Below, in pieces: positions 40,859 to 64,000 of a stretch of DNA of 64,000 bases. The position numbers and the translations under genes are program-made. The stretch is from Catenovulum sediminis (GTDB lineage: Bacteria; Pseudomonadota; Gammaproteobacteria; Enterobacterales; Alteromonadaceae): the NCBI RefSeq assembly GCF_007289895.1, contig NZ_CP041660.1, positions 868,001 through 932,000 on the forward strand. The letters run 5' to 3'. The stretch's first letter is position 1. Each line of letters begins with the position of its first letter. The notes beneath the pieces are model-generated. The model worked only from the letters and a program-made list of their open reading frames with translations. It was not told where the DNA came from and searched no databases.

Positions 40859-41614
40859 ATGCCTTTACAACCCAGAACAGCCAAACACGCTCGGTTTATT
40901 AAAAATACACTACAAAAAATCAATACCGATGGTTCGGTGATATACGCGTGTGAATTTGACAAACAAGCTTATCGTGACGAATTGTTTACCCTGTTAAATG
41001 TCAACTTTCCCGACAGACAAAAAAAAGCAGTGGTTAAACGGCGCAGTGAGTTTTTAGCCGGCCGTTATATGGCTCAGTTGGCAATGCGAACTTTACAGCA
41101 AAAAGCACAATCCAGTTTCACTAATGGAATCGCTACTTTTGCGCAGCAACAAGTCCAAGTAGGCGACAATAGAGAACCTATTTGGCCTGAAGGGTTACAA
41201 GGTTCAATAAGCCACTCTGAAAATAAAGCGATATGTGTGGTAAAACCGGCCAGCCCATCCACATTTACCGGCTTAGATTTAGAACATTATGCTGCCAGCA
41301 GCACAGCTAACGAACTGGCTAAATTTGTGATGTCAGATACCGAAATCGCTTTAATCGAAAAATTACCACTGCCTAAACACATTGCATTTACCTTGGTATT
41401 TTCAGCGAAAGAGAGTTTGTACAAAGCACTGTACCCATATATTCAGCAATTTTTCGGTTTTGATTGCGCAAATCTATTGTCCGTTGATATGCACAATCAA
41501 ACCTTATGCCTTGAGCTTAATCACCCAAAGTTAGCCACCCTAAAATTCGACAATTGCTTTACATGCCAATTTAGCTTTTGGCAAGATTGTTTGCTAACTC
41601 AACTAACGGGTTAA
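40859..41614 (+). CDS. 4'-phosphopantetheinyl transferase, EntD type
   Basis: This enzyme moves the phosphopantetheine arm of CoA onto carrier proteins. The motifs are KRRSEFLAGRYMAQLA, WPEGLQGSISHSENKA, the magnesium-binding GLDLEHY and FSAKESLYKALYP. It is about 250 residues with the ATG at 40859; the frame is open to a GTG at 40757, but the extra 34 residues look unconserved and neither start has a strong ribosome site. It converges on, and overlaps by 44 bases, the oxygenase gene of the NRPS operon. Its natural clients are the two carrier domains of the synthetase next door, although it could serve others. Confidence 0.9.
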   Translation: MPLQPRTAKHARFIKNTLQKINTDGSVIYACEFDKQAYRDELFTLLNVNFPDRQKKAVVKRRSEFLAGRYMAQLAMRTLQQKAQSSFTNGIATFAQQQVQVGDNREPIWPEGLQGSISHSENKAICVVKPASPSTFTGLDLEHYAASSTANELAKFVMSDTEIALIEKLPLPKHIAFTLVFSAKESLYKALYPYIQQFFGFDCANLLSVDMHNQTLCLELNHPKLATLKFDNCFTCQFSFWQDCLLTQLTG

Positions 41615-42362
41615 AATCTCGCCCACACAAAAACTCTGGCCGCCCCTCTTCTGCTGCGATCTGCGGCTGATTGGTGCATGGGTTGTAAGTAATAATCATC
41701 AACTCTCGGTTAAAAGGTGACAGATTACTGGACGAGCAATGTGCTAATTGCGGATCAAACAAAAATATATCACCTGCTTTACCGGTAATGTACTGAGTTC
41801 CGTGTGTATCGATTAGTTCAGCAACCGTATATTCATCCAGTTGGTATGACAAATCACTTGAAACATCGCTCATCCAATTATCTTTTCGGTTAATTTTCTG
41901 GCACAAATTGCCGTTTTTATGGCTATTTGGGATCACACAAAGTGGCCCATGCAGAATTTCGACATCACTTAATAACAGCGCAATATTAACCATGTTTGAC
42001 TGCGCAATACCATCTTCGTTTTGCCAGAAAACAAAATCCTGATGCCATGGCCAGGACGCCCCTTTCATTTTAGATTTAACGTTGATTTTAAATTGATGGA
42101 TATAAAATGGTTCAGCAATCAATTCCTGCGCCAATACAATAAAACGCGGATCTTTAACTAATTCAGCAAAAAACGTATCGTACAAATGTGCACCATGTAA
42201 ACCGCGTAACGTCTGGCCATCGTTTTCTTTGACAATCCCTGGGTTATCATACGCTTGTCCATAAAGCATAATTTTTTGTTTAATTTCTTTCACTTCCTGC
42301 TGATTAAAAGCCTGTCGGTGAAAAGCGTAACCCTGGCTACGATATTGCGATATTTGTTCCAC
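41571..42362 (-). CDS. Phytanoyl-CoA dioxygenase family Fe(II)/2-oxoglutarate oxygenase
   Basis: The 263-residue protein has the PhyH iron-binding set: WPWHQDFVFW supplies His and Asp, and LAHCSSSNLSPFNRELMIIT supplies the distal His and the 2-oxoglutarate-binding Arg. The relatives include ectoine hydroxylase, and in biosynthetic clusters such enzymes hydroxylate amino acids or peptides. It is the last gene of the minus-strand NRPS operon, 31 bases after the synthetase, so a tailoring hydroxylase is the best guess. Substrate unknown. Confidence 0.9.
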   Translation of the reverse strand: MEQISQYRSQGYAFHRQAFNQQEVKEIKQKIMLYGQAYDNPGIVKENDGQTLRGLHGAHLYDTFFAELVKDPRFIVLAQELIAEPFYIHQFKINVKSKMKGASWPWHQDFVFWQNEDGIAQSNMVNIALLLSDVEILHGPLCVIPNSHKNGNLCQKINRKDNWMSDVSSDLSYQLDEYTVAELIDTHGTQYITGKAGDIFLFDPQLAHCSSSNLSPFNRELMIITYNPCTNQPQIAAEEGRPEFLCGRDFNPLVELANNLAKS

Positions 42363-45300: not shown

Positions 45301-47748
45301 ATCAAAATGGCAATTTTCATATTGCTGCTTTAACTCCGCCAGTTGCCTTGCTATTTGATTTTCATCTTGTCCCGTCAAGTCAATTTTTTGTAAATCTTGT
45401 TCAGGATACATAGCAAAACGCATTACAATTTCATCGCCTTGCTGACAGAAACCTGCTGTTAATACTGGGTGGCGTTTTAAACAAGCATGCCAGGCAGTCG
45501 TAAAAGCCGATTGCTCAAAGTCACCACTGAATTTCAGCTGGACAGAAATATTCAGCATCCGACTATCTGGCACAACCTGTTGTAAAAACCAAAGCCTGTT
45601 TTGCGCAGCAGATAGTTTGCCTTGCTGTAATCCCAACGCGGTAATCTGTGAGTGTGTGTTTTCTGAACTGGTTTGGATCAACAATAATTGCTGGGCTAGG
45701 GTTAAATTGGCATACAAAGCTGACTCGTCGAGATGCACGGAAAATTCACGTTCAATCTCAGCCGCCAGCGTCATTAACTTAATTGAATCGCCACCCAATG
45801 CGGTAAATGGAATATCAAGATTGTCAAGCTCATCCAGAGTGCAAGATAATAATCGCATCCAAATCTTTTTTAACTGCAAGCTGATTGTACTACCTGAGCC
45901 CGCTAGATTTTGTTGAGTCTCTGACAGCTCAATGTTCGTACTGATGCCTGTCATATCAGCTGATTGCGCCATTAGCTTGGGTAAATCACTGCGCGCATAA
46001 ATATTAAGTTCAGATTGCTGAAGTAAATGAGCTGTTGCGGCTCGTTGTACCTTGCCACTGGAAGTTTTGGGCAATTGTCCAGGCGCTAAAAACAACACAT
46101 GCTCAATGGTAATTTCAAGCTCTTGCGCAATACGTGCCCGTATTGCTTTGGCAACCGTTTCCACTTTTGCTATATCTTTAAAACTTCTTAAGCGACTTCT
46201 TTTAACTTCAACGGCCACCGCCAGATGGCTGTGGTTTTGATGTAAATCGTTTTGATGTAAATTGTCCTGTTGCAAGTTGTGTTGTGGCAAACTAAAAGCC
46301 GCGCACGACAAACGTTCTAACTCGTCACTACAATCAATTACCAGCCACTCAATATCTTGCGGATAGATATTTTGTCCGTTAACGATAATCAGATCTTTAC
46401 AACGTCCTACGATAAACAGCTCCTGATTCAAAACAAAACCCAGATCGCCTGTTTTTAAAAATACTGATTGGCTATCGCTGTTGTTTAAGCGATTATTAAA
46501 AGTCTGCTGGCTTTGCTGCACATTTTGCCAATAACCCGATGCAACACTCGGCCCATTAAACCAAATTTCGCCAATATGCCCTTCTGCGCACTCAGTCTGT
46601 GATTCTCTATCCACTATTTTTATTGCATGCTCTGAAGGGGTCCGACCACAAGAAAGCAATGCAGAAGTGTTGTGCGCTAGGTGTTCGGATGATTGAATAT
46701 GGATGCTGATCGCTCGCCCTTGATTAAGCGCCTGACGATCAAAATATCTAACCGAGCTCTGCTGATAAAAACGACCGCAAATAAATACCGTCGCTTCGGC
46801 CATCCCATAACTCGGGAAAAATGCAGCTTTGTCAAAATCAGCGGGTTTACACAAATTGCTAAATGCAGTTAACGTATCGGCATTGATAGGTTCAGCAGCG
46901 TTAAATGCAACGCGCCAACTGGAGAGATTTAATTGTGCCAATTGTGATTGATTCAACTTTTGTACACAGTGATCAAACGCAAAGTTAGGACCACCACAAA
47001 TACTGCCGTTAAATTTATCAATGGCTGACAACCAAAATAGCGGCTCTCGGATAAATTGCGCAGGTGCCATTAGCACCGAATGACTGCCCAGATAAACGGG
47101 TAATAATACCGTGTTAATTAAGCCTAAATCATGAAATACCGGTAACCAATTAACAAATACATCTTTCGTATTAGCTCCTGTCGCTTCAACTAAAGCGTCC
47201 AAATTAGCAACAATGTTATTGTGTGTTACGACAACCCCTTTGGGAGCGCCGGTAGAACCTGAGGTATACTGCAAAAATGCAATATCTGAAAACGCCCCCT
47301 TTTCGACTACCTGCTCATCACTGGCTGGTGGCTGTAGATTTAAAATAGTGGCCTGCGGCGCACCATCAGCAAGCGATTTTGCAACTGCATTGTGCGCGGC
47401 CGTATCGGTCAAAATAACCTGCGCTCCAGATGACTGCAGCACTGCTGATATGCGCGCTTGTTTTTGATTGGCGCGCGGTGGGTATAAAGGGATCGCGACA
47501 ACCCCTGCGATTAAACAAGCATAAAATGTTTCAACAAACTGTAAGCCGGGTGCAAAACACAAAAGGACAGCTTGATTTGGCTGGATATGTTGTTTTAATT
47601 GTCGAGCAATTTTTTGGCTACGATCATAAAGATTTGCATAGCTTAATGTTTGCGAAGTGCCGTTTGCCAGTAAAAATGTAAATGCATTGGCATTGGGTGT
47701 TTTCTTCGCCCAGTTCGCTAAACTGTCGATAATATTATTAGCTTGCAT
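42394..47748 (-). CDS. FAAL-PCP-C-A-PCP hybrid synthetase (lipo-NRPS)
   Basis: The 1784-residue enzyme starts with a fatty acyl-AMP ligase (about 1-575; LYPPRANQKQARI, LQYTSGSTGAPKG, WLPVFHDLGLI, GGPNFAFDHC). A carrier domain follows with its pantetheine serine in ALGGDSIKL near residue 650. The condensation domain (about 705-1130) carries HHIVADAWS near 842: the catalytic His-His and Asp are kept, but the usual Gly after Asp is Ala. The adenylation domain (about 1160-1690) has ILYTSGSTGQAKG, IYGPTECTD, TGDYAKW and NGKIDRNKL. The last carrier has ELGGDSILS near 1715. There is no thioesterase or reductase domain. A fatty acid is joined to one amino acid and the product must be released or passed on by a separate enzyme. 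It overlaps the MBL gene by 11 bases. Confidence 0.94.
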   Translation of the reverse strand: MQANNIIDSLANWAKKTPNANAFTFLLANGTSQTLSYANLYDRSQKIARQLKQHIQPNQAVLLCFAPGLQFVETFYACLIAGVVAIPLYPPRANQKQARISAVLQSSGAQVILTDTAAHNAVAKSLADGAPQATILNLQPPASDEQVVEKGAFSDIAFLQYTSGSTGAPKGVVVTHNNIVANLDALVEATGANTKDVFVNWLPVFHDLGLINTVLLPVYLGSHSVLMAPAQFIREPLFWLSAIDKFNGSICGGPNFAFDHCVQKLNQSQLAQLNLSSWRVAFNAAEPINADTLTAFSNLCKPADFDKAAFFPSYGMAEATVFICGRFYQQSSVRYFDRQALNQGRAISIHIQSSEHLAHNTSALLSCGRTPSEHAIKIVDRESQTECAEGHIGEIWFNGPSVASGYWQNVQQSQQTFNNRLNNSDSQSVFLKTGDLGFVLNQELFIVGRCKDLIIVNGQNIYPQDIEWLVIDCSDELERLSCAAFSLPQHNLQQDNLHQNDLHQNHSHLAVAVEVKRSRLRSFKDIAKVETVAKAIRARIAQELEITIEHVLFLAPGQLPKTSSGKVQRAATAHLLQQSELNIYARSDLPKLMAQSADMTGISTNIELSETQQNLAGSGSTISLQLKKIWMRLLSCTLDELDNLDIPFTALGGDSIKLMTLAAEIEREFSVHLDESALYANLTLAQQLLLIQTSSENTHSQITALGLQQGKLSAAQNRLWFLQQVVPDSRMLNISVQLKFSGDFEQSAFTTAWHACLKRHPVLTAGFCQQGDEIVMRFAMYPEQDLQKIDLTGQDENQIARQLAELKQQYENCHFDLLSQPVYQAHLVNETEQQSHFFFCVHHIVADAWSFKIFLEDLSDYYHRIRNAEVAELAQIDINYLDYAVWQEKQLSAEKQQNLSNFWQQTLSPMPATLALPFDYSPTKEKSYRGGKVSRTITGLHPQLEAFAKSQNVTVFAAYCAVYQILLSRISGQLDVVIGTDVINRENASLQQVFGFFVNQIALRTELTLDDTMQEVVAKCQNTVSAAQVHQFLPFEQVVELVDKAGDLSRSPVFQVKFLLNPSPLKALQLADVKIEQQALPVQHAQYDLTFAVDFELDGSAQLNCHFDGALFAPSTVGQLADSYLHILNQLLVHSDKCLSQVEYLTPNQQQILEQYSTGQKVEVTQHFTDGLAHFADETPDKIACITEHHQFSYAEINQRANQLAHLLLAVGVQNSVVGISLAQSDELLVALCAIGKIGATFVPLDPGYPPERLSFMLADSEASFLLGDSETLPVLADDFLGTMLNLQEFSELLSVQSGENPAVKIAAESLAYILYTSGSTGQAKGVKVSYAALNNLCNWYLDFSKTTADSVALQLIPFGFDASIKNYFVPLMAGAQLVLVNQPSFDAECVLALIKRYKVTTTNCIPSVFSALVSLAKSQDYSALASFQFVAFGGERLEFAHFKDWILSSAFNASIANIYGPTECTDISAAHLLSAQQAVSRAQDENQLAQAFPIGRPIQNCQLVLLTEQAENQFSRTMPGAVGEIFITGRCLAEGYMQSLTNQGKFVQLPQASTLFYRTGDYAKWNQQAELIYCGRADEQVKINGVRIELAEIESVLSEHPALDKVCVLFKQDRLVAYVQSAALNPPTPEQCRNIVKAKLPSVMVPHQVIFVDVFATLPNGKIDRNKLAQIRVTEAKPNVDFVAPKTPVETILISCIEDVLKKQKVSMSDNFFELGGDSILSVQLVAQLQNQGVQLAVKDIFDAPTFSELVLLVTQQAATTDAAENTAFDFLSEDDLALLNQE

Positions 47749-49371
47749 CGCCGCTACCTGCTTGTGATTTTAATGCATTTAGGCGCATCTTTTTGCGGCC
47801 AAATAAGCGTTCCGCAACCTTGCCTTCACTTAAACATTTGTCGACCAATTGCTGAGACTCCAGCATTTGCGCATCATCATCGTTGTAAGAAATGCCCATA
47901 AAGTAGGCAAACCAAGGTTCCATCCCCAGTGCATAAACAAAGACTTGCTCGGGGTTTAATATATCGACAATTTTGGCTGCTGAGGCAAAACCTGAGCCAT
48001 TAAAGCGCCTCGATTCATTTGCTTGTTTGCTAATGGGTTGGGTTAATAAAGGGCCATACAACCAACGCATTGGACCTCCGGTGCACTCCATGCCAATAAA
48101 TAAAATATCAATCCTGCCAATATGTGATTTAATCTTGTCGTACAGTTCAGCTTCTAAATTAGAAGAATCAGCAGCTGAGACAATTGTGCGCCCCTGAATA
48201 TTGATCAGCCAAGCCGCTTTACTTCGAATATTAACGTCGGCATGTTCGCCTAAAAATGGGAGTGCACAGATGTAACCATCTGAAATTGGCACTTTCTCCA
48301 TATCTTCCAACTCAACTACCTGAGCAAAACCCAAGTTTTGCAACATCAATTTTATTGAAGGATCGGCCAGACTCCCCCATTATTTTTAGGGACTAAAATA
48401 GCTTTAACCTTGTGTTTAATTTGCAGCAAGGTTTCGATGCATAAGTGATCCATATGGGTATGAGTGATCATGACATAGTCGACCACGGCTGGCAGATCTG
48501 CAAAGGTAAATTTTTGCCGGTTATCTTCGTCATTTTGGTACGCGAGAACAGGATCGATAACACAACAGATATCTTTACTTTCAATTAACACACCCGCATG
48601 TCCGATATATTCAACCCGTACCCCCTCATCACTATACGGCGCTCGAATTGGCGGGGCTTGCTGCGTAAACAGCTCGCTGAACTTTTTGCCGCCACGAAAA
48701 TCGCAATCATCAGGTAATAGCTTATTTAGCGCAGCAAGCGACATCGGCACTTCACGCATTTTAAATAAAGCCTGACAAAACGCATGGCTAAAGGGCACAG
48801 TAATTTGACAATGGTTCGCATCGGCGAGCCTAGGCGTGCTGAGCACAAATGGACGTTTATCACTGGCTAAATCGCCAAAACATAAAGTTTGTTTACTCTT
48901 TTTAAATAAGGGGCTTAAATATAACAAGCCTTCAATTAAACGATACGACACTTGATTATTTAAGTCATAAACCAACTCAACGTAACCTTTTAGGTTGTCT
49001 GGTATTTTTTCATATAAACCTTCTAGACTTTCTCCATTTGCTTCAGCCAGCAATAGTTGGTCAAGCTGCTTTAAGCTCTTTGCAAATTCATATAAATCAC
49101 TTAATTGATTCTGACTCTGCTCAAGTAATGACAACATAGCCTCCACCTGCTGCTCATCACAATTTACAATTGAACTGCCAACCATACTCTTGAGCTTTGC
49201 AGCCTGCGCGTGCAATTTGGCATTAGCGATAAACGACTGCATTAAGCGCGTGTGATGATTGGCTAAATTCATGGCAGCCGGTGCTGGCGCTAATAAATAG
49301 GGCCACATGTACCACTGGTTAAAGAGGGGTTCAAAATAAACATCAGGTCGTAAATATACAGGGGTACTCAT
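47738..49371 (-). pseudogene. MBL-fold metallohydrolase (UlaG-like) of the NRPS operon, frameshifted
   Basis: Two adjoining frames encode one 544-residue protein. The first has an unusual N-terminal helical region (about 1-230), then a metallo-beta-lactamase fold: VEYIGHAGVLIES and the zinc motif THTHMDHL. The second continues PISDGYICALPFLGEHAD, ILFIGMECTGGP and the C-terminal part. The break lies at G5 (C5 at 48374-48378); six G give KNNGGSLADPSIKLMLQN in one frame. The gene starts three bases after the MetA-like stop and ends inside the start of the synthetase (ATGCAAGCTAA overlap), so it is a fixed part of this operon. Hydrolytic release or editing of the carrier-bound acyl product is conceivable but unproven. 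Confidence 0.8.
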
Positions 49372-49374
49372 GGT

Positions 49375-50241
49375 TTAACTCTCAAATTGTAGCGCTTTGG
49401 GCGGTAATGCTTGATGGTTTAGTTCGCGTACGCGCGCAAACCAGTCGGTAAAAATATTGATTGAATCGGCTAGCCAATAACTGCTGTCTGCTGTTTTATT
49501 TGTAATAGATGCAGTCAAACCAACCGGCGGATCCACATCATTACGCGCCTGATCGCGCACCCATTCTTGCTGCAGTCTTTGCGATGTGTATTCGGGGTGA
49601 CTCAGACACATGGTTAGTAAGCCATTTCGTGTAGCGAAATGGGTTGTGCCTAATTGCGGCGATTGATAAATGGGTAATACGTCCCCCTTGTTAATCAACA
49701 ATTCTAAATCTTGCTGTGAAAAAGAGGCATAGGTACTAAAAGGGTTGTAACCGAACGTACTAGATGTGTTTGCTGAAATATTTGTTGCGATATTTGTTGT
49801 GATACTTGTTGCGTTGTTTATTGCGTTATTTGTTGCGATAAGAGGATAAACGCCAAAGATTTTAGAGCTGTGCTGTTTTTTGTCGACACCAATCAATTTT
49901 GCCAGCGCCATCGCCCCCCAACAAAGCCCCAACACAGGTATTTGTCTTTGCATGAGTTGCTGTACTATCGTTATAAGCTCTTGCCAGTAGACAACTTCTT
50001 CAAACGGCAACAACTCGACTGGTGCCCCTGTGACAATCACTGCATCTAACTCTGCCAGTTTGATAGATGAAAAAAAACTATAGTCACTCAGGCTTGAATT
50101 GGCACTTTGATAACTTTTATCCGTTAACCGGATCCAACGACAATTCACCTTGATATCTAGCTGTCCAAATAATGCCAATAGCTCTTGCTGATAACATTCT
50201 GGGTTTGGCATCAGATTGATAACACCCAAACGTAAACACAT
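49375..50241 (-). CDS. MetA-family homoserine O-acyltransferase-like protein
   Basis: The 288-residue protein is of the MetA fold (class I glutamine-amidotransferase-like): GVINLMPNPECYQQELL, LDAVIVTGAPVELLPFEEV with YWQEL, the nucleophile elbow GLCWGAMALA and LSHPEYTSQRLQQEWVRD with the catalytic His. It is the first gene of the NRPS operon and carries an Asn/Thr/Ala/Ile-rich insert coded by a 12-base repeat. Standard MetA makes O-succinyl- or O-acetylhomoserine for methionine. As an operon partner it could instead supply an acylated amino acid to the adenylation domain or transfer an acyl group. The ATG has GAGGGG six bases upstream. Role inferred from context. Confidence 0.82.
   Translation of the reverse strand: MCLRLGVINLMPNPECYQQELLALFGQLDIKVNCRWIRLTDKSYQSANSSLSDYSFFSSIKLAELDAVIVTGAPVELLPFEEVVYWQELITIVQQLMQRQIPVLGLCWGAMALAKLIGVDKKQHSSKIFGVYPLIATNNAINNATSITTNIATNISANTSSTFGYNPFSTYASFSQQDLELLINKGDVLPIYQSPQLGTTHFATRNGLLTMCLSHPEYTSQRLQQEWVRDQARNDVDPPVGLTASITNKTADSSYWLADSINIFTDWFARVRELNHQALPPKALQFES
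49768..49839 (-). repeat. 12-bp coding tandem repeat in the MetA-like gene (6 copies)
   Basis: Six imperfect 12-base units, consensus ATCGCAACAAAT on the minus strand, encode tetrapeptides of the type I-A-T-N. They are in frame, so the repeat adds 24 residues of Asn/Thr-rich linker between the elbow half and the His half of the fold. Copy number could vary between strains. Confidence 0.85.
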
Positions 50242-55009: not shown

Positions 55010-55069
55010 TTACTCTGCCTTTTGCTCTGTATTTTGCTCTGAATTTGACTCTGTATTTTATTCTGTATT
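55010..55069 (-). repeat. 12-bp tandem repeat at the 3' end of the heme oxygenase gene (5 copies)
   Basis: Five contiguous 12-base units, typically AATACAGAGCAA, code for N-T-E-Q type tetrapeptides in the heme oxygenase frame. The first unit has TAA where others have CAA or TCA, so the protein stops there; the last unit also ends in TAA. The array looks like a former acidic tail cut short by a point mutation. Confidence 0.85.
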
Positions 55070-55690
55070 ATAAATGCTGACTTTGCAGACTTTGTGCCGG
55101 CATTCAAACCAGTTAATTAACTGGTTAAAGCACGCTAATGCAGCATTTATGACCGCTTGTTGATTGATTGCACTGTTTTTTGAAAACTGATCTAAGCTGC
55201 TTTTCCAAGTCAACCAACACTCCGCGGCCTGTGCGCTTTGAGTCTGATAATAATTAAACCTATAGCGTGACTTTAAAGGCGACTTTTGTAGCTTTCTAAT
55301 AATAAAACGTGCGCCCATTTGCGAGCCGGTTAAGACATAACTGTACCCCAAATAGTGTTCAATGGATTTGATTTCAGGCAGAGGTATCAGTATTGCAGGT
55401 TTTAGTTGATAGTTAAATTGACTGACTTCTGTTTCTAAGGCCGCCAGATGGCATTCAATCCGTGCAAATGCAGGAATGTTTAACTGACGTTCCGCTTGTT
55501 TAAACACAGCGACCCATGCTTTTAAGCAGTGATAAAAATACAGGATAGTCGTTTCGTACTGTAACGGCGTGAGATCCGCAGACAGTAAATTCTGCAGTAC
55601 AGTCACTTGATCCAACCTTGCATGATAACAACTGGTATCACACTTCAACTGTTGACTAAGTGGCACTAGGTTTTTTAATATGTTGTTCAA
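55058..55690 (-). CDS. bphO: Biliverdin-producing heme oxygenase (BphO-like)
   Basis: Heme oxygenase opens heme to biliverdin, the chromophore of bacteriophytochromes. The product has the proximal-histidine segment CYHARLDQ and the distal-helix segment YLGYSYVLTGSQMGARF, corresponding to Y-L-Y-V-L-E-G-S-x-x-G in the family. It overlaps the 3' end of the phytochrome gene, so the chromophore enzyme and its receptor are coupled. The frame is open to an ATG at 55750; I prefer the TTG at 55690 (GCGAG upstream) or the GTG at 55666, which give about 200-210 residues, the family's usual length. The tail ends in an interrupted 12-base repeat. Confidence 0.8.
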   Translation of the reverse strand: MNNILKNLVPLSQQLKCDTSCYHARLDQVTVLQNLLSADLTPLQYETTILYFYHCLKAWVAVFKQAERQLNIPAFARIECHLAALETEVSQFNYQLKPAILIPLPEIKSIEHYLGYSYVLTGSQMGARFIIRKLQKSPLKSRYRFNYYQTQSAQAAECWLTWKSSLDQFSKNSAINQQAVINAALACFNQLINWFECRHKVCKVSIYNTE

Positions 55691-58568
55691 TAAATAACTC
55701 GCTGGGCAAGGGCTTACTATAGTAATATCCTTGGCATGTATCACAACCAAGGCCTTTTAAAATATTAAATTCAACCCGACTTTCAACACCTTCGGCGACC
55801 ACTTCAAGCTTAAGCTTTTTACACAGTTCAATAATACTTTCTACCATAGTAAACAAACTATCATCTTGGCTCATGTTGGCGATAAAAGACTTGTCAATTT
55901 TCACTTCATCAATGGGGAGCTTCCACAGATAATTTAAAGATGAAAAACCCGTCCCAAAATCATCCAATGCAATTGTGAAACCCAGTTTGCGCAGAGATTT
56001 TAAATTAGCAATGGCCAATTCATAGTTCTGCATAAAAATAGATTCAGTGATTTCTAATCGGATATCGCTCGGGGTCAAACCATATGCAAGCAAGATATCC
56101 ATCATATTGTTTTCAAACGACCTATCCAACAGTAAGCTCGGACTAATATTGACAGACAAGGTATCAAAGTTAGGGGGTAAATTGTGCCCACGCCAATCCA
56201 CGAGCGTTGCACATGCTTTTTTGAAAATATGCAAGCTCAAAGGTTTAATCAAATTATTCATTTCAGCCATCTGAATAAAAATCTCAGGACTGATATAACC
56301 AAATTTCGGGTGTTTCCACCTAGCGAGCGCTTCAGCACCTGAGAGGTTTAAATTAAAATCGCATTGCGGCTGAAAATGTAATTCTATACATTCAGAGTTA
56401 ACATAGTCTCGCAAATCTAGGGTTAATATCGCTTTTTTATTAAATGCCTCCTGATCTTTACTGTCAAAAATGTGAAACCCGTTTTTGCCTTTATTTTTAG
56501 CGGAATACATCGCAATATCTGCTCGTTTCAGCATTTCATTAAAGTCAATATCTTGTACATTACCACTGATAACCCCAACGCTGGGGGTTATCACAATAGT
56601 ATGTTCATGATCAAGAATAGGCTCTCCAACCGTCGTCACCACTTTTTCAGCTATTGCGGCCAAATCCAATTGATTTTCATGGATAAACACAATGATAAAC
56701 TCATCACCACCAAGCCTGACCACCAAATCGTTTGGCCGCGAGCATTCTTTTAAACGAATAGCAATTGTTTGCAATAAACGGTCACCCGTTTCATGCCCCA
56801 TAAAATCATTTACGTCTTTAAAATTATCTAGGTCGATAAAAAGGACAGACATTTTTTCATCTGGTTTATTAGAATTCTGACGCATGCCGTCAATGAACTT
56901 TTTTAAATATGCACGATTAGCTAAATTGGTTAGCAAATCATAATGTGCATTTTGTTCAAGCTTTTTCATTAACAGTTCATTGCTTTTAACGCTGGTAAAA
57001 TCACGACAACTGGTAAAAAAATATTCTAGAATTTTATCGTCTTGGGGTAGCCAATAATCACATTGACCTTTTACTTGTTCACGCCACAAGGCAAATGAAC
57101 TTCTTGGTTCTAAATGACGTTCTTGCCCTTTAACAACAATATTAACGGTATTGGGTACGCCCCCCCACTGAATGGATTTAACCACCTCTTTTTTACCAAA
57201 AAACACATAGAAATCTGACGGTATTTTAGAGCGCATGGCATTGATACCTGCCATGCTTTCAAGTCCAGGAATGGTTTTATTTTCAGCATGCAGCTTATAC
57301 GATTGATATTGTAAACGCTCTGGGTCAGCAAATAACTTATCGATCGCTTTGATTGTTTTTTTAGATAGCAATTTAAATTGCTCGTCCGCCAAGCAGTAAC
57401 ATTTATCACCATAGATAATCCCGATAAAATCATAGCCTACAATTTTATGAATCTCTGTGAGTGCATTGGCAAAAATCTGCTGCGATATCGCCTGCATTTT
57501 GGCCTTGTTAAAGGTTGCTTCAATCACACTTTTCGCCGCCATTAAATGAGTAATTTCCATCATCTGTATGGCCGGCATTAAGTAGGAAGACAGGGTTTCA
57601 CTGAAAAGCTCACAGGTGAGTTTAACTTGAGAAACAACATGATTGGGAGGTGATTTGGGCAGATTATGATGAAATACCACAAGCCCCCACAACTTACCCT
57701 CCACTATAATTGACAAGGTCAGCGTTGCTTTTACGCCCATGTTGTTTAAGTATATACGGTGCATATTCGATATGCTCCGCAGCAACGCGTAACTTTGATC
57801 TAACAATTGCCCATCTGGTAAAACGTTGGGGATCAGCTTGCTAGGCTCTGCATCTGCATTGGCAAAAACACGTACTTTATTTAATGTGTACAACTCTCTG
57901 GCTTGTTTGGGTATGTCATCGGCAGGAAAACGCATATGTAAAAATTTGACTTTTTCTTGCTCTGATACCGCTTCTGAGACAACCTCCCCCGACCAATCGG
58001 GCAAAAAACGATACATCATGACGCGATCAAACTGCGTATATTGCTGAAACTGATTGGTAATTGTATCAAACAACTCTTGAGTACCTTGCGCACTTCTTAA
58101 AATCTGCACCATCCGGTTCATTTGTGAAATTAATTCAAACGAGTCATATGTGTCCTGTGAAGTTGGAACAAATTCAAGTAATATCCATTGCTTGGCAAGA
58201 TGACCAACACACTCCCATTGCACATTGGAAATCAGCGCATTTGAATTCAATTCTACTTTATCTGTTTGCTCATAACAGAGGCGATCGAACGCATTTTTAA
58301 CTGTCAGCTCTATCCAATCAAAGATTGAGGTATTTAATATTTGTGTATCTTCGGTAAGAAATTGTTTTTTTGCATATTGATTGAAAAGCATCACAAAATT
58401 GTCTGAGTACTGAACGATTTTCAAGGTTGTAGGATCAAGTACAAACACAAAACCATGAGGCTGGATGCTACCTATTAAGTGGATAGGCTCAGACGCGCAT
58501 TTTTCTGCTTCCGCAGCTGTGATCTTTCTGGTGATAACACTTTGTGTTTCGTTTTCCTTCGCCATCAT
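55656..58568 (-). CDS. Bacteriophytochrome with diguanylate cyclase and phosphodiesterase domains
   Basis: The 970-residue photoreceptor starts with PAS (about 20-130), biliverdin attached to Cys24 in AEKCASEPIHLIGSIQPHG. The GAF domain (about 150-325) has RFPADDIPKQAREL, LRSISNMHRIYLNNMGVKAT and LWGLVVFHHN. PHY (about 335-520) has the tongue PRSSFALWREQVKG. GGDEF (about 545-710) has VVRLGGDEFIIVF with the inhibitory site RPND five residues ahead. EAL (about 720-960) has EALARWKHP, ITESIF, DDFGTGFSSLNYL and VAEGVES. Both output domains keep their catalytic motifs, so red/far-red light would set c-di-GMP. The PASDIP motif reads PADDIP. It follows the ABC exporter gene by 41 bases with no clear terminator. 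Confidence 0.95.
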   Translation of the reverse strand: MMAKENETQSVITRKITAAEAEKCASEPIHLIGSIQPHGFVFVLDPTTLKIVQYSDNFVMLFNQYAKKQFLTEDTQILNTSIFDWIELTVKNAFDRLCYEQTDKVELNSNALISNVQWECVGHLAKQWILLEFVPTSQDTYDSFELISQMNRMVQILRSAQGTQELFDTITNQFQQYTQFDRVMMYRFLPDWSGEVVSEAVSEQEKVKFLHMRFPADDIPKQARELYTLNKVRVFANADAEPSKLIPNVLPDGQLLDQSYALLRSISNMHRIYLNNMGVKATLTLSIIVEGKLWGLVVFHHNLPKSPPNHVVSQVKLTCELFSETLSSYLMPAIQMMEITHLMAAKSVIEATFNKAKMQAISQQIFANALTEIHKIVGYDFIGIIYGDKCYCLADEQFKLLSKKTIKAIDKLFADPERLQYQSYKLHAENKTIPGLESMAGINAMRSKIPSDFYVFFGKKEVVKSIQWGGVPNTVNIVVKGQERHLEPRSSFALWREQVKGQCDYWLPQDDKILEYFFTSCRDFTSVKSNELLMKKLEQNAHYDLLTNLANRAYLKKFIDGMRQNSNKPDEKMSVLFIDLDNFKDVNDFMGHETGDRLLQTIAIRLKECSRPNDLVVRLGGDEFIIVFIHENQLDLAAIAEKVVTTVGEPILDHEHTIVITPSVGVISGNVQDIDFNEMLKRADIAMYSAKNKGKNGFHIFDSKDQEAFNKKAILTLDLRDYVNSECIELHFQPQCDFNLNLSGAEALARWKHPKFGYISPEIFIQMAEMNNLIKPLSLHIFKKACATLVDWRGHNLPPNFDTLSVNISPSLLLDRSFENNMMDILLAYGLTPSDIRLEITESIFMQNYELAIANLKSLRKLGFTIALDDFGTGFSSLNYLWKLPIDEVKIDKSFIANMSQDDSLFTMVESIIELCKKLKLEVVAEGVESRVEFNILKGLGCDTCQGYYYSKPLPSELFIEQHIKKPSAT

Positions 58569-58609
58569 CCTGCCGCATACAATTTAATTTAATAAAAGTA
58601 TAGTCGCTT

Positions 58610-60307
58610 TTAATTTGGGCGTGTTGATTCAGCTGCACAAGATTTAATTTTGCGGTATTTAACCTCTCTGACTCGCCCGTTTTCCATCAACACAAGCTGG
58701 TCGGCATAATCAAAATAGCGATCATCATGGGTAATGGCGATAATAATTTTCCCCTGCGCTTTGAGCGATGGCAAAATAGTACGATAAAAAATATCTTTAA
58801 ATCTGGGATCTTGATCGGCCGCCCATTCATCAAATAAGCAAATTTGACGGTTTTCGTATAATGCAGCAAATAGCGCAAGACGCTTACGTTGGCCATCAGA
58901 TAAATTCAATGTGCTAAATTGATTGTCTTTAATGACTACTTTTTCTTGTAGTTCAAGATAGGACAATAAACGTGCTGATTTTTCTTCGTCTATCTCACCA
59001 TATAACTTTTCAAACAGATAAAAATCGGTATAGATAGCTGAAATATGTTCTCGATAACTTTGCAAATTGCTGCTGTTAAGCTCAACGCCGTCATATAAGA
59101 TCTGTCCTGCGGTTGCATGGTAATGCAGCGTTAATAATTTTGATAAGGTTGATTTTCCGCTGCCATTGCCCCCCACAATAAAGGTGACTTCGCCTTGCTT
59201 AAATTTTAGGTTAATGTCTTTTAATGCAAAGCTGTTATCTGCAGTCGCATCAGCATATTGGTAACTGAGATTTTTGAGTAGCATGATTTGTGGCGGCATC
59301 ACGGTTTGCTGCACATCAGCATTTTTCTCTTCATGCATTTCAGCATAAAATGCCTGAATACGTTTTAGTGAAACTTTGCCTTTTTGGATCTCACCTAAAC
59401 TGCCTAAAATAATGCTAACCGGCCCGGTTAGATATAACAAAGCCACTACAATGCCAAATAGTTCTGTTTGGTCAATCGCATACATGTATGTTAAATGAAA
59501 AATAACAATACCAATCACTAAAAACGCAATAAGCTCTCCATAAACTTCAGCAAAAGTGACAATCGCCATTCCTTTAAAGTTATCTTGCAGCGCGTCAAAT
59601 TCAGGTTTAATCAAATTTTCGTTGAGATAATTTTGCGACTTATGACGACTTAGCTTTAATTCTTTAGCGCCATATATCAGCCCTTTTGCACCATCCTGTA
59701 CTTTGTCAAAACTCGCTCTGGAACGCGAAAAATAACGCACGCCTAAAATACTGGGAATTTGATAAATGACTATCGCAATTAAGATCGCGAACAAAACAAA
59801 GACAAATACCCGTTCATTTAAATACAACAGATAACTTAAAGTGCCCATCACGGTTATTAAACTAATCCAGATAAACGGCAAACTGGTAGCCGCTGAGTAG
59901 ATATTGTGGATATCAACATTAATAATGTTAATCAAACGTGCTTGACCAATACGCTCTAGCGCTGAATACGAAAGTGCGTTGATACGTTTATACAATTCAA
60001 TGCGGTGTAAAACTGTACTCTTGTGCACAATATAAACCGACAAAATATGCGAGATAGATTTCAACAAAATAATCGCTAGGCAAGTATATAAAAATGCCTT
60101 CGCCATCGATGCTGTGGGTGAGTCGAAAAAACTAAAATTGCTTATTTCAAGCGACACGGGATCAATTTGCTGGGCACTGGTCGCGTACATGATAAACGGC
60201 ACTAAAGTGGCGTAACACAAGCCGGTAAACATCCCCAAGGTTAAAGAAGAAAAGAACAGGTTTGGGGTGTTGGCCCAATACAAATCAGATATTTTTTTTA
60301 ATTCCAT
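58610..60307 (-). CDS. Cyclic-peptide/lipopeptide exporter, ABC transporter of the SyrD/PvdE type
   Basis: The 565-residue half-transporter fuses six helices (about 15-310) to a nucleotide-binding domain. The ATPase has Walker A GGNGSGKST, the Q-loop region near YTDFYLFEKLYG, signature LSDGQRKRLALFAALYE, Walker B ICLFDEWAADQDP and the H-loop in IAITHDD. The DEWAADQDP form and YTDFYLFEK are characteristic of peptide exporters in siderophore and lipopeptide clusters (PvdE, SyrD), which carry precursors to the periplasm. It overlaps the acylase gene by 10 bases, so exporter and acylase belong to one unit. The exported substrate is not known. Confidence 0.95.
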   Translation of the reverse strand: MELKKISDLYWANTPNLFFSSLTLGMFTGLCYATLVPFIMYATSAQQIDPVSLEISNFSFFDSPTASMAKAFLYTCLAIILLKSISHILSVYIVHKSTVLHRIELYKRINALSYSALERIGQARLINIINVDIHNIYSAATSLPFIWISLITVMGTLSYLLYLNERVFVFVLFAILIAIVIYQIPSILGVRYFSRSRASFDKVQDGAKGLIYGAKELKLSRHKSQNYLNENLIKPEFDALQDNFKGMAIVTFAEVYGELIAFLVIGIVIFHLTYMYAIDQTELFGIVVALLYLTGPVSIILGSLGEIQKGKVSLKRIQAFYAEMHEEKNADVQQTVMPPQIMLLKNLSYQYADATADNSFALKDINLKFKQGEVTFIVGGNGSGKSTLSKLLTLHYHATAGQILYDGVELNSSNLQSYREHISAIYTDFYLFEKLYGEIDEEKSARLLSYLELQEKVVIKDNQFSTLNLSDGQRKRLALFAALYENRQICLFDEWAADQDPRFKDIFYRTILPSLKAQGKIIIAITHDDRYFDYADQLVLMENGRVREVKYRKIKSCAAESTRPN

Positions 60308-62847
60308 TGGGACGCTCGCTGGCTAACAGTCAATTCAGGTAGTAACATCAGAGGAAGTTTATCTCTATCCGTCTCACCGCTTGAAAAAGTAAAATAGCGC
60401 CCGGCCTGATGCGCATCGGTAAAATCATCATAATGTTGACTCAACGGATTACCGGACTGCCCCGCTATGGCCGTAAACCAAAACTGGCCATTGTCGGTTA
60501 GTTCTATCACTTGGCGATAAACCGGCCCGACAAACTGGGCAAAACGCCTTGTTTCATCCAGCGCAACAGGCGCAACATTTATCGTATAACCCGCGCCCTT
60601 AGATTGCGCTTGACGATGAAACAGCCCGGCCAAAAGATTGTCGCTTTTAGCACGGCTGCGAATCAGGTATTTAGCATCACTCATTGGAAAATGCGGAAAA
60701 TGAGCAAAATGCACTTGCCGCCATTGCAGCATTTCGATATTCGATGAATAAGACTTTTCCAGTTCATCCACCGCGTGCTGTAGCGCAATCCACAGTAACT
60801 GCTGGCAACTTTCAGTTGTGGCTGTCAGCTGATAATCGCACCACAATGTATTGCCTTGTAATAAAACCTGCTGCAACAACCATAGATTTTCCTGCTCTTT
60901 AAATTGCGCCAAGTAATTACGTGCGTTGATAAAATCAGCTGTCGCTTGTATGTCATCTTCTACTAGCAAGCGGGTAAAATGCGCCATCCAAGCGCTAAAA
61001 ATAGTTGCTTGAGCACTATCGGCTGACATCTCACCTTGCCAGATAGCCAAAAATTGCAGCGTTTGAGTATATTTTTCAGTTTGCTGATTTTTAGCGTTTT
61101 GCGTTTGCGCCTGATGGTTTGCTAACCAAGCTTGCAAATCTCGAATGACCGTTAAAAATGCCTGCGCTTTAGGTAAGGTAATATCCTGTTGGATATTTTT
61201 AAAACTTTGTGGCTCTGCCAGTGATCCTGATTGTACTAATGATTGTAATAGTGATTGTATACGCTGCGCGCGATAACCGGGCGCCCAGTCATGACCCAGA
61301 TAATAAGGATAATCCTTTGCTAACAAGTTATGATTTGCTGCAACAATCATCCCGCTCGCTGGGTTATATTGTTGTGGCAACTGAGCGTGTTCAATCCAAC
61401 CCCGCCAGTTAGTGTCGCTTAACCATCCCGGCTTGGGCAACATCCCTGAATTATCACTTCGTAGTGGAATTAAACCCGGAGCATAACGGCCTATGTTGCC
61501 CTGTTTATCAGCATATACAAAATTATGTACCGGTGCGACAAAGGTACTCAAAGCCTGTTTAAATTGCGTCCAGTTTTGTGCGTAGTTTAATGCCAGAAAG
61601 CTACTAAAAGTGCCTCCGTTTTGTTCATCCCCCGTCCATTTAAGACTATATGCAAAGCTATTTTCGCTGCGATTGAGGTCACTGATAACGGGCCCGTGGA
61701 TGGTGCGTCTGATATTAATTGTTACTGCAGGTTCAGCCGGTTTTAAAAAATCAGATTTAACCTCAATCAGCTCAGTTTTAAGCTGCATCGCTAAATATTT
61801 TCCGTCATACAAATATTGATTTATATTGTTTGGATTGACCCGCTCGACATAAATGTCTTGCGTGTCGGCCATCATATTGGTTAATCCCCAAGCAATTTGC
61901 GCATTACGCCCAATTACGATAAAAGGTAAACCTGGGAAACTGGCCCCTTCTGCAGCCAATTTGCCACCATTTAATTTTGCCAAATAAAATATCGCAGGTG
62001 TGCTGTAAGCTAGGTGTGGATCATTTGCCAATAAGGGTTGACCACTTTTAGTATGTTTACCCGATACCACCCAACTGTTGCTGCCAACAAATTGTTTTTG
62101 CTGTGCCTGAAAGTTTTGCGCCAATGCCATCAAAGGCTCAAGATCGGCCATGTTTTGTACTGTGGCTAGTTGTGTTATCGCAGATGCATCAATATCAAGC
62201 GGCATCAACGCTTGCGTTTTTTCTAGCCCGTATGCCTGAATAAGCGCGGCACGCTGGATATCAGTTAGCATACTATTTGATAACTGAAAAGACAGCAGCT
62301 GCATCCAAGATAATGAATCCACCTCTGTCCATTTTTCGGGTTGATGCTGATATAACAAAAATTCGGGTGGCAGAACGTTCAGTTGAGCCATACCGGCATT
62401 AACCCCTTTGACATAAGCCTTCAGCACTTTTTTGTCAGCGGCCGGTAATTGCTGCCACATTTTTTTCGCGTTTTCGTATAGCCCCAAAACACGCATCAAT
62501 TTGTCTGATTCAAGTGTCGAGCGCCCTAAAATTTCGCTCAAGCGACCCGCAGCTGTGCGCCGGTTCATCTCCATTTGCCATAAGCGGTTTTGCGCATGGA
62601 CAAATCCCATACCATAAAACACCGCTAAGTCTTCACTCGCGCTGATTGTGGGTATCGCGTTGTGGTCATAATCAATCGTCACCGGCGCATTCAGATCTGG
62701 CACTTTAATTTGTTGATGATTTTGCGCCAGACTTAAATCTAATACATATAAGGTGGCAAAACATAACAAGACAATCGGTAACAAAACAAACAGGCAAACG
62801 CGCGCCAATAAGGGGTGACGTTGAATGACAAGAGTAACAAAATGCAT
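60298..62847 (-). CDS. Periplasmic Ntn-hydrolase acylase (penicillin acylase/PvdQ-like)
   Basis: This 849-residue precursor has an N-terminal membrane helix (LARVCLFVLLPIVLLCFATLY), the alpha-subunit start (PVTIDYDHNAIPTISASEDL; GMGFVHAQNRLWQMEMNRR) and the autocleavage site FVG-SNSW with the nucleophile Ser256. The beta subunit has NDPHLAYSTPAIFYLAKL and IGRNAQIAWGLTNMMADTQD. Such enzymes cleave fatty-acyl amides; in pyoverdine synthesis PvdQ removes the acyl chain from an exported precursor. The gene lies one base after the sulfotransferase gene and overlaps the exporter, so deacylating the exported product fits. Acyl-homoserine-lactone quenching or beta-lactam hydrolysis is the alternative. 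Confidence 0.93.
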   Translation of the reverse strand: MHFVTLVIQRHPLLARVCLFVLLPIVLLCFATLYVLDLSLAQNHQQIKVPDLNAPVTIDYDHNAIPTISASEDLAVFYGMGFVHAQNRLWQMEMNRRTAAGRLSEILGRSTLESDKLMRVLGLYENAKKMWQQLPAADKKVLKAYVKGVNAGMAQLNVLPPEFLLYQHQPEKWTEVDSLSWMQLLSFQLSNSMLTDIQRAALIQAYGLEKTQALMPLDIDASAITQLATVQNMADLEPLMALAQNFQAQQKQFVGSNSWVVSGKHTKSGQPLLANDPHLAYSTPAIFYLAKLNGGKLAAEGASFPGLPFIVIGRNAQIAWGLTNMMADTQDIYVERVNPNNINQYLYDGKYLAMQLKTELIEVKSDFLKPAEPAVTINIRRTIHGPVISDLNRSENSFAYSLKWTGDEQNGGTFSSFLALNYAQNWTQFKQALSTFVAPVHNFVYADKQGNIGRYAPGLIPLRSDNSGMLPKPGWLSDTNWRGWIEHAQLPQQYNPASGMIVAANHNLLAKDYPYYLGHDWAPGYRAQRIQSLLQSLVQSGSLAEPQSFKNIQQDITLPKAQAFLTVIRDLQAWLANHQAQTQNAKNQQTEKYTQTLQFLAIWQGEMSADSAQATIFSAWMAHFTRLLVEDDIQATADFINARNYLAQFKEQENLWLLQQVLLQGNTLWCDYQLTATTESCQQLLWIALQHAVDELEKSYSSNIEMLQWRQVHFAHFPHFPMSDAKYLIRSRAKSDNLLAGLFHRQAQSKGAGYTINVAPVALDETRRFAQFVGPVYRQVIELTDNGQFWFTAIAGQSGNPLSQHYDDFTDAHQAGRYFTFSSGETDRDKLPLMLLPELTVSQRASQWN

Positions 62848-62848
62848 C

Positions 62849-63613
62849 TCAATAAACCTCAGCAGAGCTTTTATCCGCTATCAAAGTCGCGCTGCGTTGC
62901 ATTTTCAAATATATCTCGCGCGCTTGCTGATATATTTTTTGATACTGAGGGGCTACTTGAACAACCGTATCATTTGCCTTTTCAAAGCCGCATGAAGCTT
63001 CTACATTGGCATACCAATAGGGCGCCCAAACGCCGTCACTTTGTCTTTTCCCTTTTGGCCAACAGAGCATTTTTTCTGAAAAAGGAATATGTAAATGGCT
63101 ACATAACGCACTCAGTGCTTTTTTAGGTTCAGATAAAACCCACTGACTATCCATTACGATGGGGGGCACCGTGTTATTGGCCAGACAATATTGATAAATA
63201 TGCCATTGCTGCACAAACCCCAACTCATCAATGCTAAATTGCGGCCTAATTTTGGCGTACGAGTTGATTATTTTGGCTGGCTCACGCAATAAAAATACAT
63301 TTTTAAGATGTTTGGTAAAAGCCAAATCGACTTCAGGCAAAACATGATGTGTCATATGTTTTTGATAAAAAACCGTGCAGTTTGTATCAAGCGCTCCCTG
63401 CGTTAACTGTTCGGCAACTAGCTGCCAACGAGTAGACATGCTGGCCAATATTTCTGCTCTCGCTGGGTGCTGTAAACCGGTTTGTTGTAAATAATAAGCA
63501 TATAAAGGCTCATCCACTACACAGGTATCCGCCCGGTTTTCAAATGCCCGCATCATCGCCGTTGAAATATTACGTGGCCCAGACCACATCGCAATTCGAC
63601 ATTCATTTCTCAT
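62849..63613 (-). CDS. Sulfotransferase-family protein
   Basis: The 254-residue protein has a P-loop-like start (IAMWSGPRNISTAMMRAFEN), typical of the SGPRNIST sulfotransferase-like family, and a second nucleotide-contact segment VFLLREPAKIINSYAK where PAPS enzymes have the RDP..S motif. DEPLYAYYL and HMTHHVLPEVD are other conserved stretches. Its ATG overlaps the thioesterase stop (TGATG), and it precedes the acylase gene, so it belongs to the biosynthetic operon. A sulfate transfer or another phosphonucleotide-using tailoring step is possible; some relatives are of unknown activity. Confidence 0.85.
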   Translation of the reverse strand: MRNECRIAMWSGPRNISTAMMRAFENRADTCVVDEPLYAYYLQQTGLQHPARAEILASMSTRWQLVAEQLTQGALDTNCTVFYQKHMTHHVLPEVDLAFTKHLKNVFLLREPAKIINSYAKIRPQFSIDELGFVQQWHIYQYCLANNTVPPIVMDSQWVLSEPKKALSALCSHLHIPFSEKMLCWPKGKRQSDGVWAPYWYANVEASCGFEKANDTVVQVAPQYQKIYQQAREIYLKMQRSATLIADKSSAEVY

Positions 63614-64000
63614 CAGGCAGATACCTTTTCAAGCTGCGCTTGCAGCTCTGTATTGATTACACGCAATAATGCCTCTGTTGCAGTTTCTAAAAACAAATGT
63701 CCGCCTGGTATCTCACTAAACTGGCAATTTGCCGCAATCACTTCAGACCATTTAGACAACATCTTTTTCGGCACCCGTGTATCTTGCGTGCCGCACAAAA
63801 CATGGGTCGGACAATGGATTTTTGTCGGGTTTGGCTGATAAAAGTTTTCTGCTAGTTCAAAGTCAGCTTTTAACATAGGTAACAACAAAGCCATGAGCTC
63901 CTTGTTTTGCAAAATCTCGTCGGGCGTGCCATTTAGCGTTTTCAGTTTTTCAACAAATTCAGCTTGTGGTAAGTGATAGGTTTTATCCTGATAAGCAACT
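63613..64000 (-). CDS. Type II thioesterase (GrsT-like), C-terminal part, cut by window edge
   Basis: The frame is open from the right edge to a TGA at 63613-63615. It reads FVEKLKTLNGTPDEILQNKE followed by LMALLLPMLKADFELAENFY, which is the lid-and-helix region of type II thioesterases of NRPS and PKS clusters. CPTHVLCGTQDTRVP carries the catalytic Asp and IPGGHLFLE the catalytic His. The nucleophile Ser lies outside the window. These enzymes clear misprimed carrier domains. Its presence as the first visible gene suggests that further synthetase genes lie to the right. Confidence 0.88.
   Translation of the reverse strand, partial: VAYQDKTYHLPQAEFVEKLKTLNGTPDEILQNKELMALLLPMLKADFELAENFYQPNPTKIHCPTHVLCGTQDTRVPKKMLSKWSEVIAANCQFSEIPGGHLFLETATEALLRVINTELQAQLEKVSA

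What the first reader, a model, noticed from the sequence alone, without database searches (positions are those of the whole stretch)
58610..64000. Export-and-deacylation operon (type II TE, sulfotransferase-like, PvdQ-like acylase, PvdE/SyrD-like exporter) suggests a prodrug-type pathway
Seen: TGATG overlap, 1-base gap, then 10-base overlap join the four genes. Known: pyoverdine and several prodrug-type peptide antibiotics are built with a fatty-acyl or acyl-Asn head, exported, then trimmed in the periplasm. Here a FAAL-loaded synthetase lies 11-16 kb away, giving a plausible acyl head to be removed. The type II TE at the edge implies more synthetase genes to the right.
Basis: partly seen in the sequence, partly recalled or inferred. 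Interest (0 to 1): 0.78.

Follow-up and report, generated by a model that had tools for sequence, protein, structure and literature searches.

The report
Peptide export-and-trim gene module
A marine bacterium appears to build a small peptide with a fatty tail, pump it out and clip the tail off outside the inner membrane, using an exporter and a clipping enzyme that are inherited together in many marine bacteria; the scheme resembles the one that matures the iron carrier pyoverdine, but the clipping enzyme is only a distant relative of the pyoverdine one.

Summary
In detail: exporter, acylase, sulfotransferase-like protein and type II thioesterase overlap or abut as described. "PvdQ-like" does not hold by family score (88.5 bits, cut-off 950) or identity (about 18%). 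The acylase belongs to a clade of 35 (SH-aLRT 97), each directly upstream of an exporter of this kind (35 of 35). NRPS or FAAL sequence flanks 34 of 35 linked stretches; 12 of 12 lower-scoring acylases have neither. Exporters show a nearly matching clade. A second cluster in the same genome has acylase, exporter and FAAL-NRPS consecutively, which ties the window's FAAL-NRPS to this operon. Best explanation: an acyl-primed peptide is exported, then deacylated in the periplasm, as in pyoverdine. That the product is a toxic prodrug is not shown; FAAL is not obligatory; one clade member lacks the catalytic motif. New variant of a known kind.

The parts
58610..60307 (-). cyclic peptide export ABC transporter (TIGR01194), 565 aa
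   Evidence: 344.5 bits, cut-off 286.2; an exporter of this kind directly follows the acylase in 35 of 35 clade members
60298..62847 (-). PF01804 Ntn-type acylase, 849 aa, N-terminal hydrophobic anchor, nucleophile S256, H278, N505, R526
   Evidence: clade
62849..63613 (-). Sulfotransfer_5 protein, 254 aa; role in the pathway unknown
   Evidence: PF19798 174.3 bits; context of two relatives elsewhere
63613..64000 (-). type II thioesterase, 3' part of the gene (whole gene 63613 to about 64371)
   Evidence: PF00975 160.1 bits
42394..47748 (-). FAAL-T-C-A-T NRPS, 1784 aa, no thioesterase domain found: likely loading protein of the pathway
   Evidence: the same gene type directly follows acylase and exporter in cluster 2
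48352..49371 (-). CmlA-type diiron beta-hydroxylase, N-terminal piece (gene split by a frame break at a G run)
   Evidence: PF18456 256.2 bits; CmlA beside acylase and exporter in 4 other loci
47738..48349 (-). CmlA-type hydroxylase, C-terminal piece
   Evidence: 43-45% identity to the same four loci
49375..50241 (-). MetA/HTS-like protein, 288 aa; possible precursor enzyme
   Evidence: PF04204 145.6 bits; far below the MetA cut-offs of NCBIfam
41571..42362 (-). PhyH dioxygenase, 263 aa; possible tailoring enzyme
   Evidence: 41% identical to a PhyH in the Alteromonas mediterranea cluster L157
40757..41614 (+). Sfp/EntD-type phosphopantetheinyl transferase
   Evidence: PPTase also in linked loci L050, L057, L062, L093
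50621..54969 (+). RND efflux adaptor and pump; membership in the pathway uncertain
   Evidence: an adaptor/RND pair also lies upstream of the acylase-like gene in L062

Best explanation
This is the export-and-maturation end of an NRPS pathway. A FAAL-NRPS (window 42394-47748) activates a fatty acid as acyl-AMP and acylates the first residue. The chain passes to the 3,813-aa and 2,034-aa NRPSs encoded upstream in the operon, which have four adenylation domains, one of them for a Cys that is cyclised and oxidised to a thiazole; one residue is probably epimerised. The type II thioesterase clears stalled carriers. The acylated peptide is moved across the inner membrane by the TIGR01194 exporter. 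The membrane-anchored Ntn acylase, facing the periplasm, then removes the acyl chain. Shown here: gene order, domains, intact acylase catalytic residues, and co-inheritance of acylase and exporter in NRPS loci. Inferred: that FAAL protein and operon are one pathway, acyl identity, order of steps, periplasmic site, product activity.
For: Six coupled genes from the larger NRPS to the exporter. 35 exporter-linked acylases form one clade (SH-aLRT 97, quick tree) beside unlinked relatives. Exporter directly downstream on the same strand in 35 of 35, gaps -28 to 200 bases; acylase and exporter distances correlate, Mantel r 0.857, largest of 5,000 permutations 0.354. Controls: 12 of 12 lower-scoring acylases had no exporter, NRPS or FAAL nearby. 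Exporter tree: 36 linked plus 3 unlinked exporters form one clade (100), the other 25 unlinked ones lie outside. Second cluster in the genome: acylase, exporter, FAAL-NRPS consecutively. L036, L038, L040: acylase, exporter, CmlA, FAAL in one direction, the order of the window's two blocks. Pseudoalteromonas sp. MMG007 L076: acylase, exporter, FAAL-NRPS. Nucleophile Ser or Thr and His23-beta in 34 of 35; hydrophobic N-terminal segment 35 of 35. Precedent: PvdE/PvdQ (passages of PMC6206403).
Against: No chemistry. FAAL in the fetched stretch of only 11 of 35 other loci (a twelfth, beside L044, is cut by the stretch's edge but shown), and in 16 of 21 genomes. In the window FAAL-NRPS and operon are 11 kb apart, with RND, phytochrome and other genes between. 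The CmlA gene is frame-broken. L062 sits by exporter and FAAL but lacks the acylase nucleophile motif and His. Two exporters of the exporter clade, L205 and L207, have no acylase beside them. Nearest solved relatives cut small acyl groups. L077, sister of the acylase clade, had no NRPS or exporter match in the 22 kb held.
Confidence: 0.72

Rival explanations
1. The acylase is a self-protection or degradative enzyme: it destroys the cell's own or foreign acylated peptides or AHL signals, and the active product is the acylated lipopeptide (as proposed for Tem25 and GdnD).
For: GdnD deacylates glidonins and is discussed as possible detoxification, like Tem25 of telomycin (PMC10587159 passages). 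The wider family includes AHL acylases.
Against: The acylase stands next to one exporter clade in 35 of 35 cases and is co-inherited with it; GdnD by contrast lies about 1 Mb from its cluster. PvdQ/AHL-type proteins are only about 18% identical.
Confidence: 0.15
2. The acylase works on another bond or in the other direction: it transfers or removes a small acyl group such as succinyl, or helps release the peptide, since the assembly line ends in a C domain without thioesterase.
For: Nearest solved relatives are D-succinylase and penicillin G acylase. The 2,034-aa NRPS ends in a C domain and Pfam found no TE. Five genomes with clade acylases show no FAAL at 1e-30.
Against: A predicted membrane-anchored periplasmic enzyme should not reach carrier-bound intermediates in the cytoplasm. 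FAAL-NRPS is adjacent in several clusters.
Confidence: 0.08
3. It is a siderophore pathway of pyoverdine type rather than an antibiotic.
For: PvdL/PvdE/PvdQ is the best-described system of this layout. Cluster 2 has a TonB receptor gene about 70 bases upstream of its acylase.
Against: That receptor matches only TIGR01782 in NCBIfam, no siderophore-receptor model. No Fur-box match with up to 3 mismatches in the window or L002. None of the proteins that I scanned is a hydroxamate or catechol enzyme, but not all genes of the region were scanned.
Confidence: 0.12

Closest known systems
Pyoverdine maturation: PvdL (acyl start), PvdE exporter, PvdQ acylase
   Same: Acyl-primed NRPS, cyclic-peptide-type ABC exporter, periplasmic Ntn acylase (PMC6206403 passages)
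   Different: Acylase is not PvdQ by score or identity; acylase and exporter genes adjoin in every clade member; thiazole-forming module present; no pyoverdine chromophore gene among the proteins scanned
Bleomycin-like NRPS-PKS cluster of Alteromonas macleodii/mediterranea plasmids (PMC3777966; ORF 112 acylase, ORF 113 transporter; I take L157 for the same cluster)
   Same: L157's acylase is in the clade and overlaps an exporter of the same clade; shares PhyH, TEII and Cy-type domains
   Different: Hybrid with PKS, different NRPSs; the passages seen do not propose deacylation after export
Renieramycin cluster RenK/RenL; saframycin fatty-acid chain removal by SfmE
   Same: RenL is a related acylase (32%) beside RenK, which matches the FAAL queries; saframycin is described as exported with its fatty acid chain, then trimmed (PMC9570651 passage)
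   Different: RenL falls outside the clade in the tree, though inclusion is not rejected (p 0.555); no exporter match in the 22 kb of that 33 kb record held
Glidonin acylase GdnD
   Same: Removes the fatty chain of a finished lipopeptide (PMC10587159 passages)
   Different: PvdQ-like by the paper's comparison, encoded far from its cluster, several substrates
D-succinylase and penicillin G acylases
   Same: Same PF01804 family; nearest solved sequences
   Different: No NRPS or exporter linkage known to me (recalled)

Membership tests
PvdQ (NF051460 equivalog) | score above the curated cut-off of 950 bits | tested here: not met
   88.5 bits
PvdQ-like/AHL acylase branch | groups with PvdQ-like proteins in a tree | tested here: inconclusive
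   9 PvdQ-like proteins, themselves below the PvdQ cut-off, form their own branch (100); holding them with the clade is not rejected, p-AU 0.868; mean identity 18.2% to the clade, 18.5% to other acylases
PF01804 Ntn acylases | family score, nucleophile Ser, His23-beta and Asn | tested here: met
   685 bits; S256, H278, N505, R526 present
TIGR01194 cyclic peptide exporters (SyrD/PvdE type) | score above 286.2 bits | tested here: met
   344.5 bits
FAAL (not CoA ligase) | best matches are fatty-acyl-AMP ligases | tested here: met
   PDB up to 380 bits for FAAL domains, about 90 for CoA ligases; NCBIfam fatty-acid--AMP ligase 449.5 bits, below that model's cut-off of 775
Pyoverdine-type acyl-on, export, acyl-off pathway | acyl-loading domain, exporter and acylase in one cluster | tested here: met
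   for cluster 2 and relatives; in the window the FAAL gene is 11 kb away
Pyoverdine-type acyl-on, export, acyl-off pathway | acylated precursor accumulates without the acylase | not testable with these tools
   needs a mutant and LC-MS
Prodrug antibiotic | product toxic only after deacylation | not testable with these tools
   no product known

The most novel reading that the evidence does not exclude
A lineage of Ntn acylase far from PvdQ has joined with its own clade of exporter into a portable export-and-trim module, perhaps a physical complex in which the membrane-anchored acylase sits at the exporter's mouth. Where it occurs, it marks NRPS products that carry a temporary fatty tail, a class of hidden prodrugs in marine bacteria.
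Probability: 0.4. Interest if true: 0.78.

Novelty: new variant of a known kind. Interest (0 to 1): 0.6.

Why it matters
Why the pyoverdine precursor is acylated and then deacylated after transport is put as an open question in PMC6206403 (passage). A distant acylase lineage that is coupled to one exporter clade gives a natural replicate in which to test whether the tail is for membrane anchoring, for exporter recognition or for self-protection. It also gives a usable marker: the acylase/exporter pair predicts that an NRPS product is trimmed, so the mature compound would not be the lipopeptide that module-based prediction gives.

Tried and rejected
A PvdQ reading was tested and dropped on score and identity; its exact place in the tree stays open. 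I first took the Cupriavidus relatives for D-succinylase orthologues; the one tested, L086, scores only 270 bits against that enzyme. A Fur-box search gave nothing, and a ribosome-binding-like pattern search was of no use. I expected FAAL beside every clade acylase; that failed. I expected the terminal C domain of the 2,034-aa NRPS to match the free C-domain proteins beside the acylase in Vibrio and Alteromonas; it did not (31.6 bits to the Vibrio protein, no listed hit to the Alteromonas one). A class-wide search gave, besides G000, one genome of 369 with a match at 1e-105 (G310); no NRPS or exporter matched in 18 kb round it. A-domain codes other than the Cys one were too unlike codes I recall to name residues.

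What was left out of counts: of 29 places above 270 bits outside G000, I fetched 27; G080:C133 came later as L210 and G029 (3.3 kb contig) stayed out of the tables. The 12 control acylases were picked by me from the lower-scoring hits. Of 130 acylases collected, 90 went into the tree: 37 with NRPS linkage, 12 lower-scoring same-family, 9 PvdQ-like and the first 32 other unlinked ones. In some searches, five rows were dropped by name (L049; L055 and L056, a near-identical pair, both; L062 and L063, long branches) and the unlinked set was cut to 14. Of 106 plasmid records with a match, three were opened.

Full report
What is there. On the minus strand, read from right to left, the genes at 58610-64000 are the end of a six-gene operon. 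The window is G000:C1:868001-932000 of a 4.87 Mb genome in two contigs. Stretches taken beyond 64000 show an NRPS of 3,813 aa, an NRPS of 2,034 aa, then the type II thioesterase, the sulfotransferase-like protein, the acylase and the exporter. Junctions are a 10-base overlap, a 4-base overlap, a shared base (TGATG), a 1-base gap and a 10-base overlap. The operon spans window 58610 to about 81904. That it is one transcript is inferred from the packing.

Assembly line. Pfam gives the 3,813-aa protein three condensation, three adenylation and three carrier domains, and the 2,034-aa protein three condensation-type, one adenylation and one carrier domain. The third adenylation domain of the larger protein has code DLYNMSLIWK, close to the Cys code that I recall. 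It carries an insert that matches PF00881 (29.6 bits), SagB (41.2 bits, cut-off 78.4) and weakly the NRPS oxidase BmdC, and is preceded by a domain whose two best matches among the loci searched are in the Alteromonas bleomycin-like cluster. I read this as a thiazole-forming module. The second condensation-type domain of the 2,034-aa protein looks like an epimerase by its motif (recalled); the protein ends in a condensation domain and Pfam listed no thioesterase in it. The FAAL-NRPS at 42394-47748 is FAAL-T-C-A-T, also without one.

The acylase clade. In 295 genomes of the same family, 166 have a match to the acylase at 1e-30; by my count 21 have a place above 270 bits. I fetched 27 of the 29 such places outside G000 and 12 lower-scoring ones with flanks. 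All 27 had the exporter; 26 of 27 had NRPS or FAAL sequence, some of it weak (L054, 60-64 bits); the exception L046 had exporter and CmlA. None of the 12 controls had any of these. In a recount over 35 linked stretches other than the window, exporter was in 35, a C or A domain above 60 bits in 34, a C domain in 31, FAAL above 250 bits in 11. That list was the best 80 of 589 confirmed matches and was pattern-limited. On plasmids, clade members occur in Vibrio europaeus and Alteromonas mediterranea.

Trees. In a quick tree of 90 acylases without bootstrap, 35 exporter-linked ones form one clade (SH-aLRT 97) with the unlinked L077 as sister; the linkage label over all 37 rows needs 3 changes against a shuffled mean of 28.9. 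RenL and the Thiomargarita protein fall outside, though RenL inside is not rejected (p-AU 0.555). L062 is a long branch whose place is unsure. PvdQ-like proteins form their own long branch. An AU test did not reject holding them with the clade (p 0.868; the held tree was even better), so I claim distance (18% identity, the same as to other acylases), not a firm place.

The exporter partner. In all 35 the exporter follows the acylase on the same strand, gap -28 to 200 bases; distances correlate (Mantel r 0.857; 5,000 permutations reached at most 0.354); 21 of 35 share the same nearest neighbour. In the 21 genomes there are 59 TIGR01194 matches, 57 of them over the cut-off; by position I count 31 next to a clade acylase and 28 not. 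A tree of 64 exporters puts the 36 linked and 3 unlinked ones in one clade (100) and the other 25 outside. Of the 3, L192 begins at a contig edge, so its upstream gene cannot be seen; L205 has about 3 kb upstream and L207 has both flanks, without acylase, so both are true exceptions (L207 has a FAAL nearby). The module is thus a matched pair, with few exceptions, and not an acylase that happens to be near any exporter.

Link to FAAL. The second cluster of this genome (about 1.09-1.12 Mb) has acylase (52% identical), exporter (55%) and a FAAL-NRPS consecutively. In L036, L038 and L040 the order is acylase, exporter, CmlA, FAAL, the order and direction of the window's two blocks, which here are separated by 8.4 kb with phytochrome, a small gene that looks like a heme oxygenase (recalled; no NCBIfam match) and RND genes. 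The window FAAL's three best matches outside its genome all lie within 5 kb of clade acylases. Against this, FAAL is present in only 11 of 35 other linked stretches, or 12 with G124 at 8 kb, and five of 21 genomes show none at 1e-30. Those pathways may load the acyl group with a starter condensation domain; I did not test this.

Mechanism. In the 26-row alignment the nucleophile is Ser or Thr in 26 and His at beta-23 in 26. Over all 35 clade rows it is 34 and 34: L062 has neither, so that protein is altered or dead. All 35 have a hydrophobic N-terminal segment, and two cysteines are conserved in 35 of 35 against 0 of 12 controls, though also in 43 or 44 of 72 other relatives. This fits a membrane-anchored periplasmic enzyme; no localisation was measured. 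The precedents are PvdE/PvdQ (PMC6206403, passages only) and saframycin, described as exported with its fatty chain and then trimmed (PMC9570651, passages only). Whether the product is an antibiotic is open. The Alteromonas relative is bleomycin-like and strains with it were wholly or partly phleomycin-resistant (PMC3777966, passages only), and renieramycin has a related acylase beside a FAAL-matching NRPS; both are hints, not proof.

Distribution. Of 8 genomes of the genus held, this one alone has the exporter at 1e-40, and the seven others showed no acylase match at 1e-30, so both clusters are probably acquired. In 369 genomes drawn from the class, one besides G000 had an acylase at 1e-105 and nothing of the module was found round it.

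Literature. The text library (open PMC papers) was searched with nine queries. In the listings I saw no paper describing the acylase/exporter pair as a conserved module; I read passages of four papers only, so this is a statement about those searches. The Alteromonas paper names both genes separately.

Noticed in passing
window 47738-49371: CmlA-type hydroxylase gene is split into two ORFs at a run of G bases. Cluster 2 NRPS genes also look frame-broken, near G/C runs (L003 about 11350 and 13065), so sequencing slips are possible.
   Followed up: partly
window 55058-58568: A bacteriophytochrome-like protein with GGDEF and EAL parts follows the exporter after 41 bases on the same strand, with a small heme-oxygenase-looking gene behind it; it may be cotranscribed with the NRPS operon. 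No minus-strand terminator-like site was found at 58400-58760.
   Followed up: partly
window 62849-63613; L171, L177: Relatives of the sulfotransferase-like protein (28 of 196 family genomes, this one included) were, in the two loci read, directly behind a gene that looks like a class IV aminotransferase (recalled); here it lies in an NRPS operon, and no homologue was found beside 35 other linked acylases.
   Followed up: partly
L003 6269-11338: Cluster 2 NRPS protein carries stretches that look like FkbH and VOC domains (recalled look, not scanned).
   Followed up: no
L156 24219-28949: The Vibrio europaeus plasmid cluster has cysD, cysN, an SLC13 permease and cysC right behind the exporter, as if supplying activated sulfate for a sulfated product.
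   Followed up: no
L062: PPTase, RND adaptor and pump, an acylase-like gene without the catalytic motif, exporter and a FAAL gene lie in one direction; a possible parallel to the RND pair at window 50621-54969, and a possible acylase turned to another use.
   Followed up: partly
L105 (Candidatus Thiomargarita nelsonii): A related acylase stands beside NRPS domains with no exporter match in the stretch held.
   Followed up: no
L002 6323-16010 and L004 15398-19901: Both NRPS clusters have genes that look like polysaccharide-use genes (recalled look) and a TIGR01782 TonB receptor nearby.
   Followed up: partly
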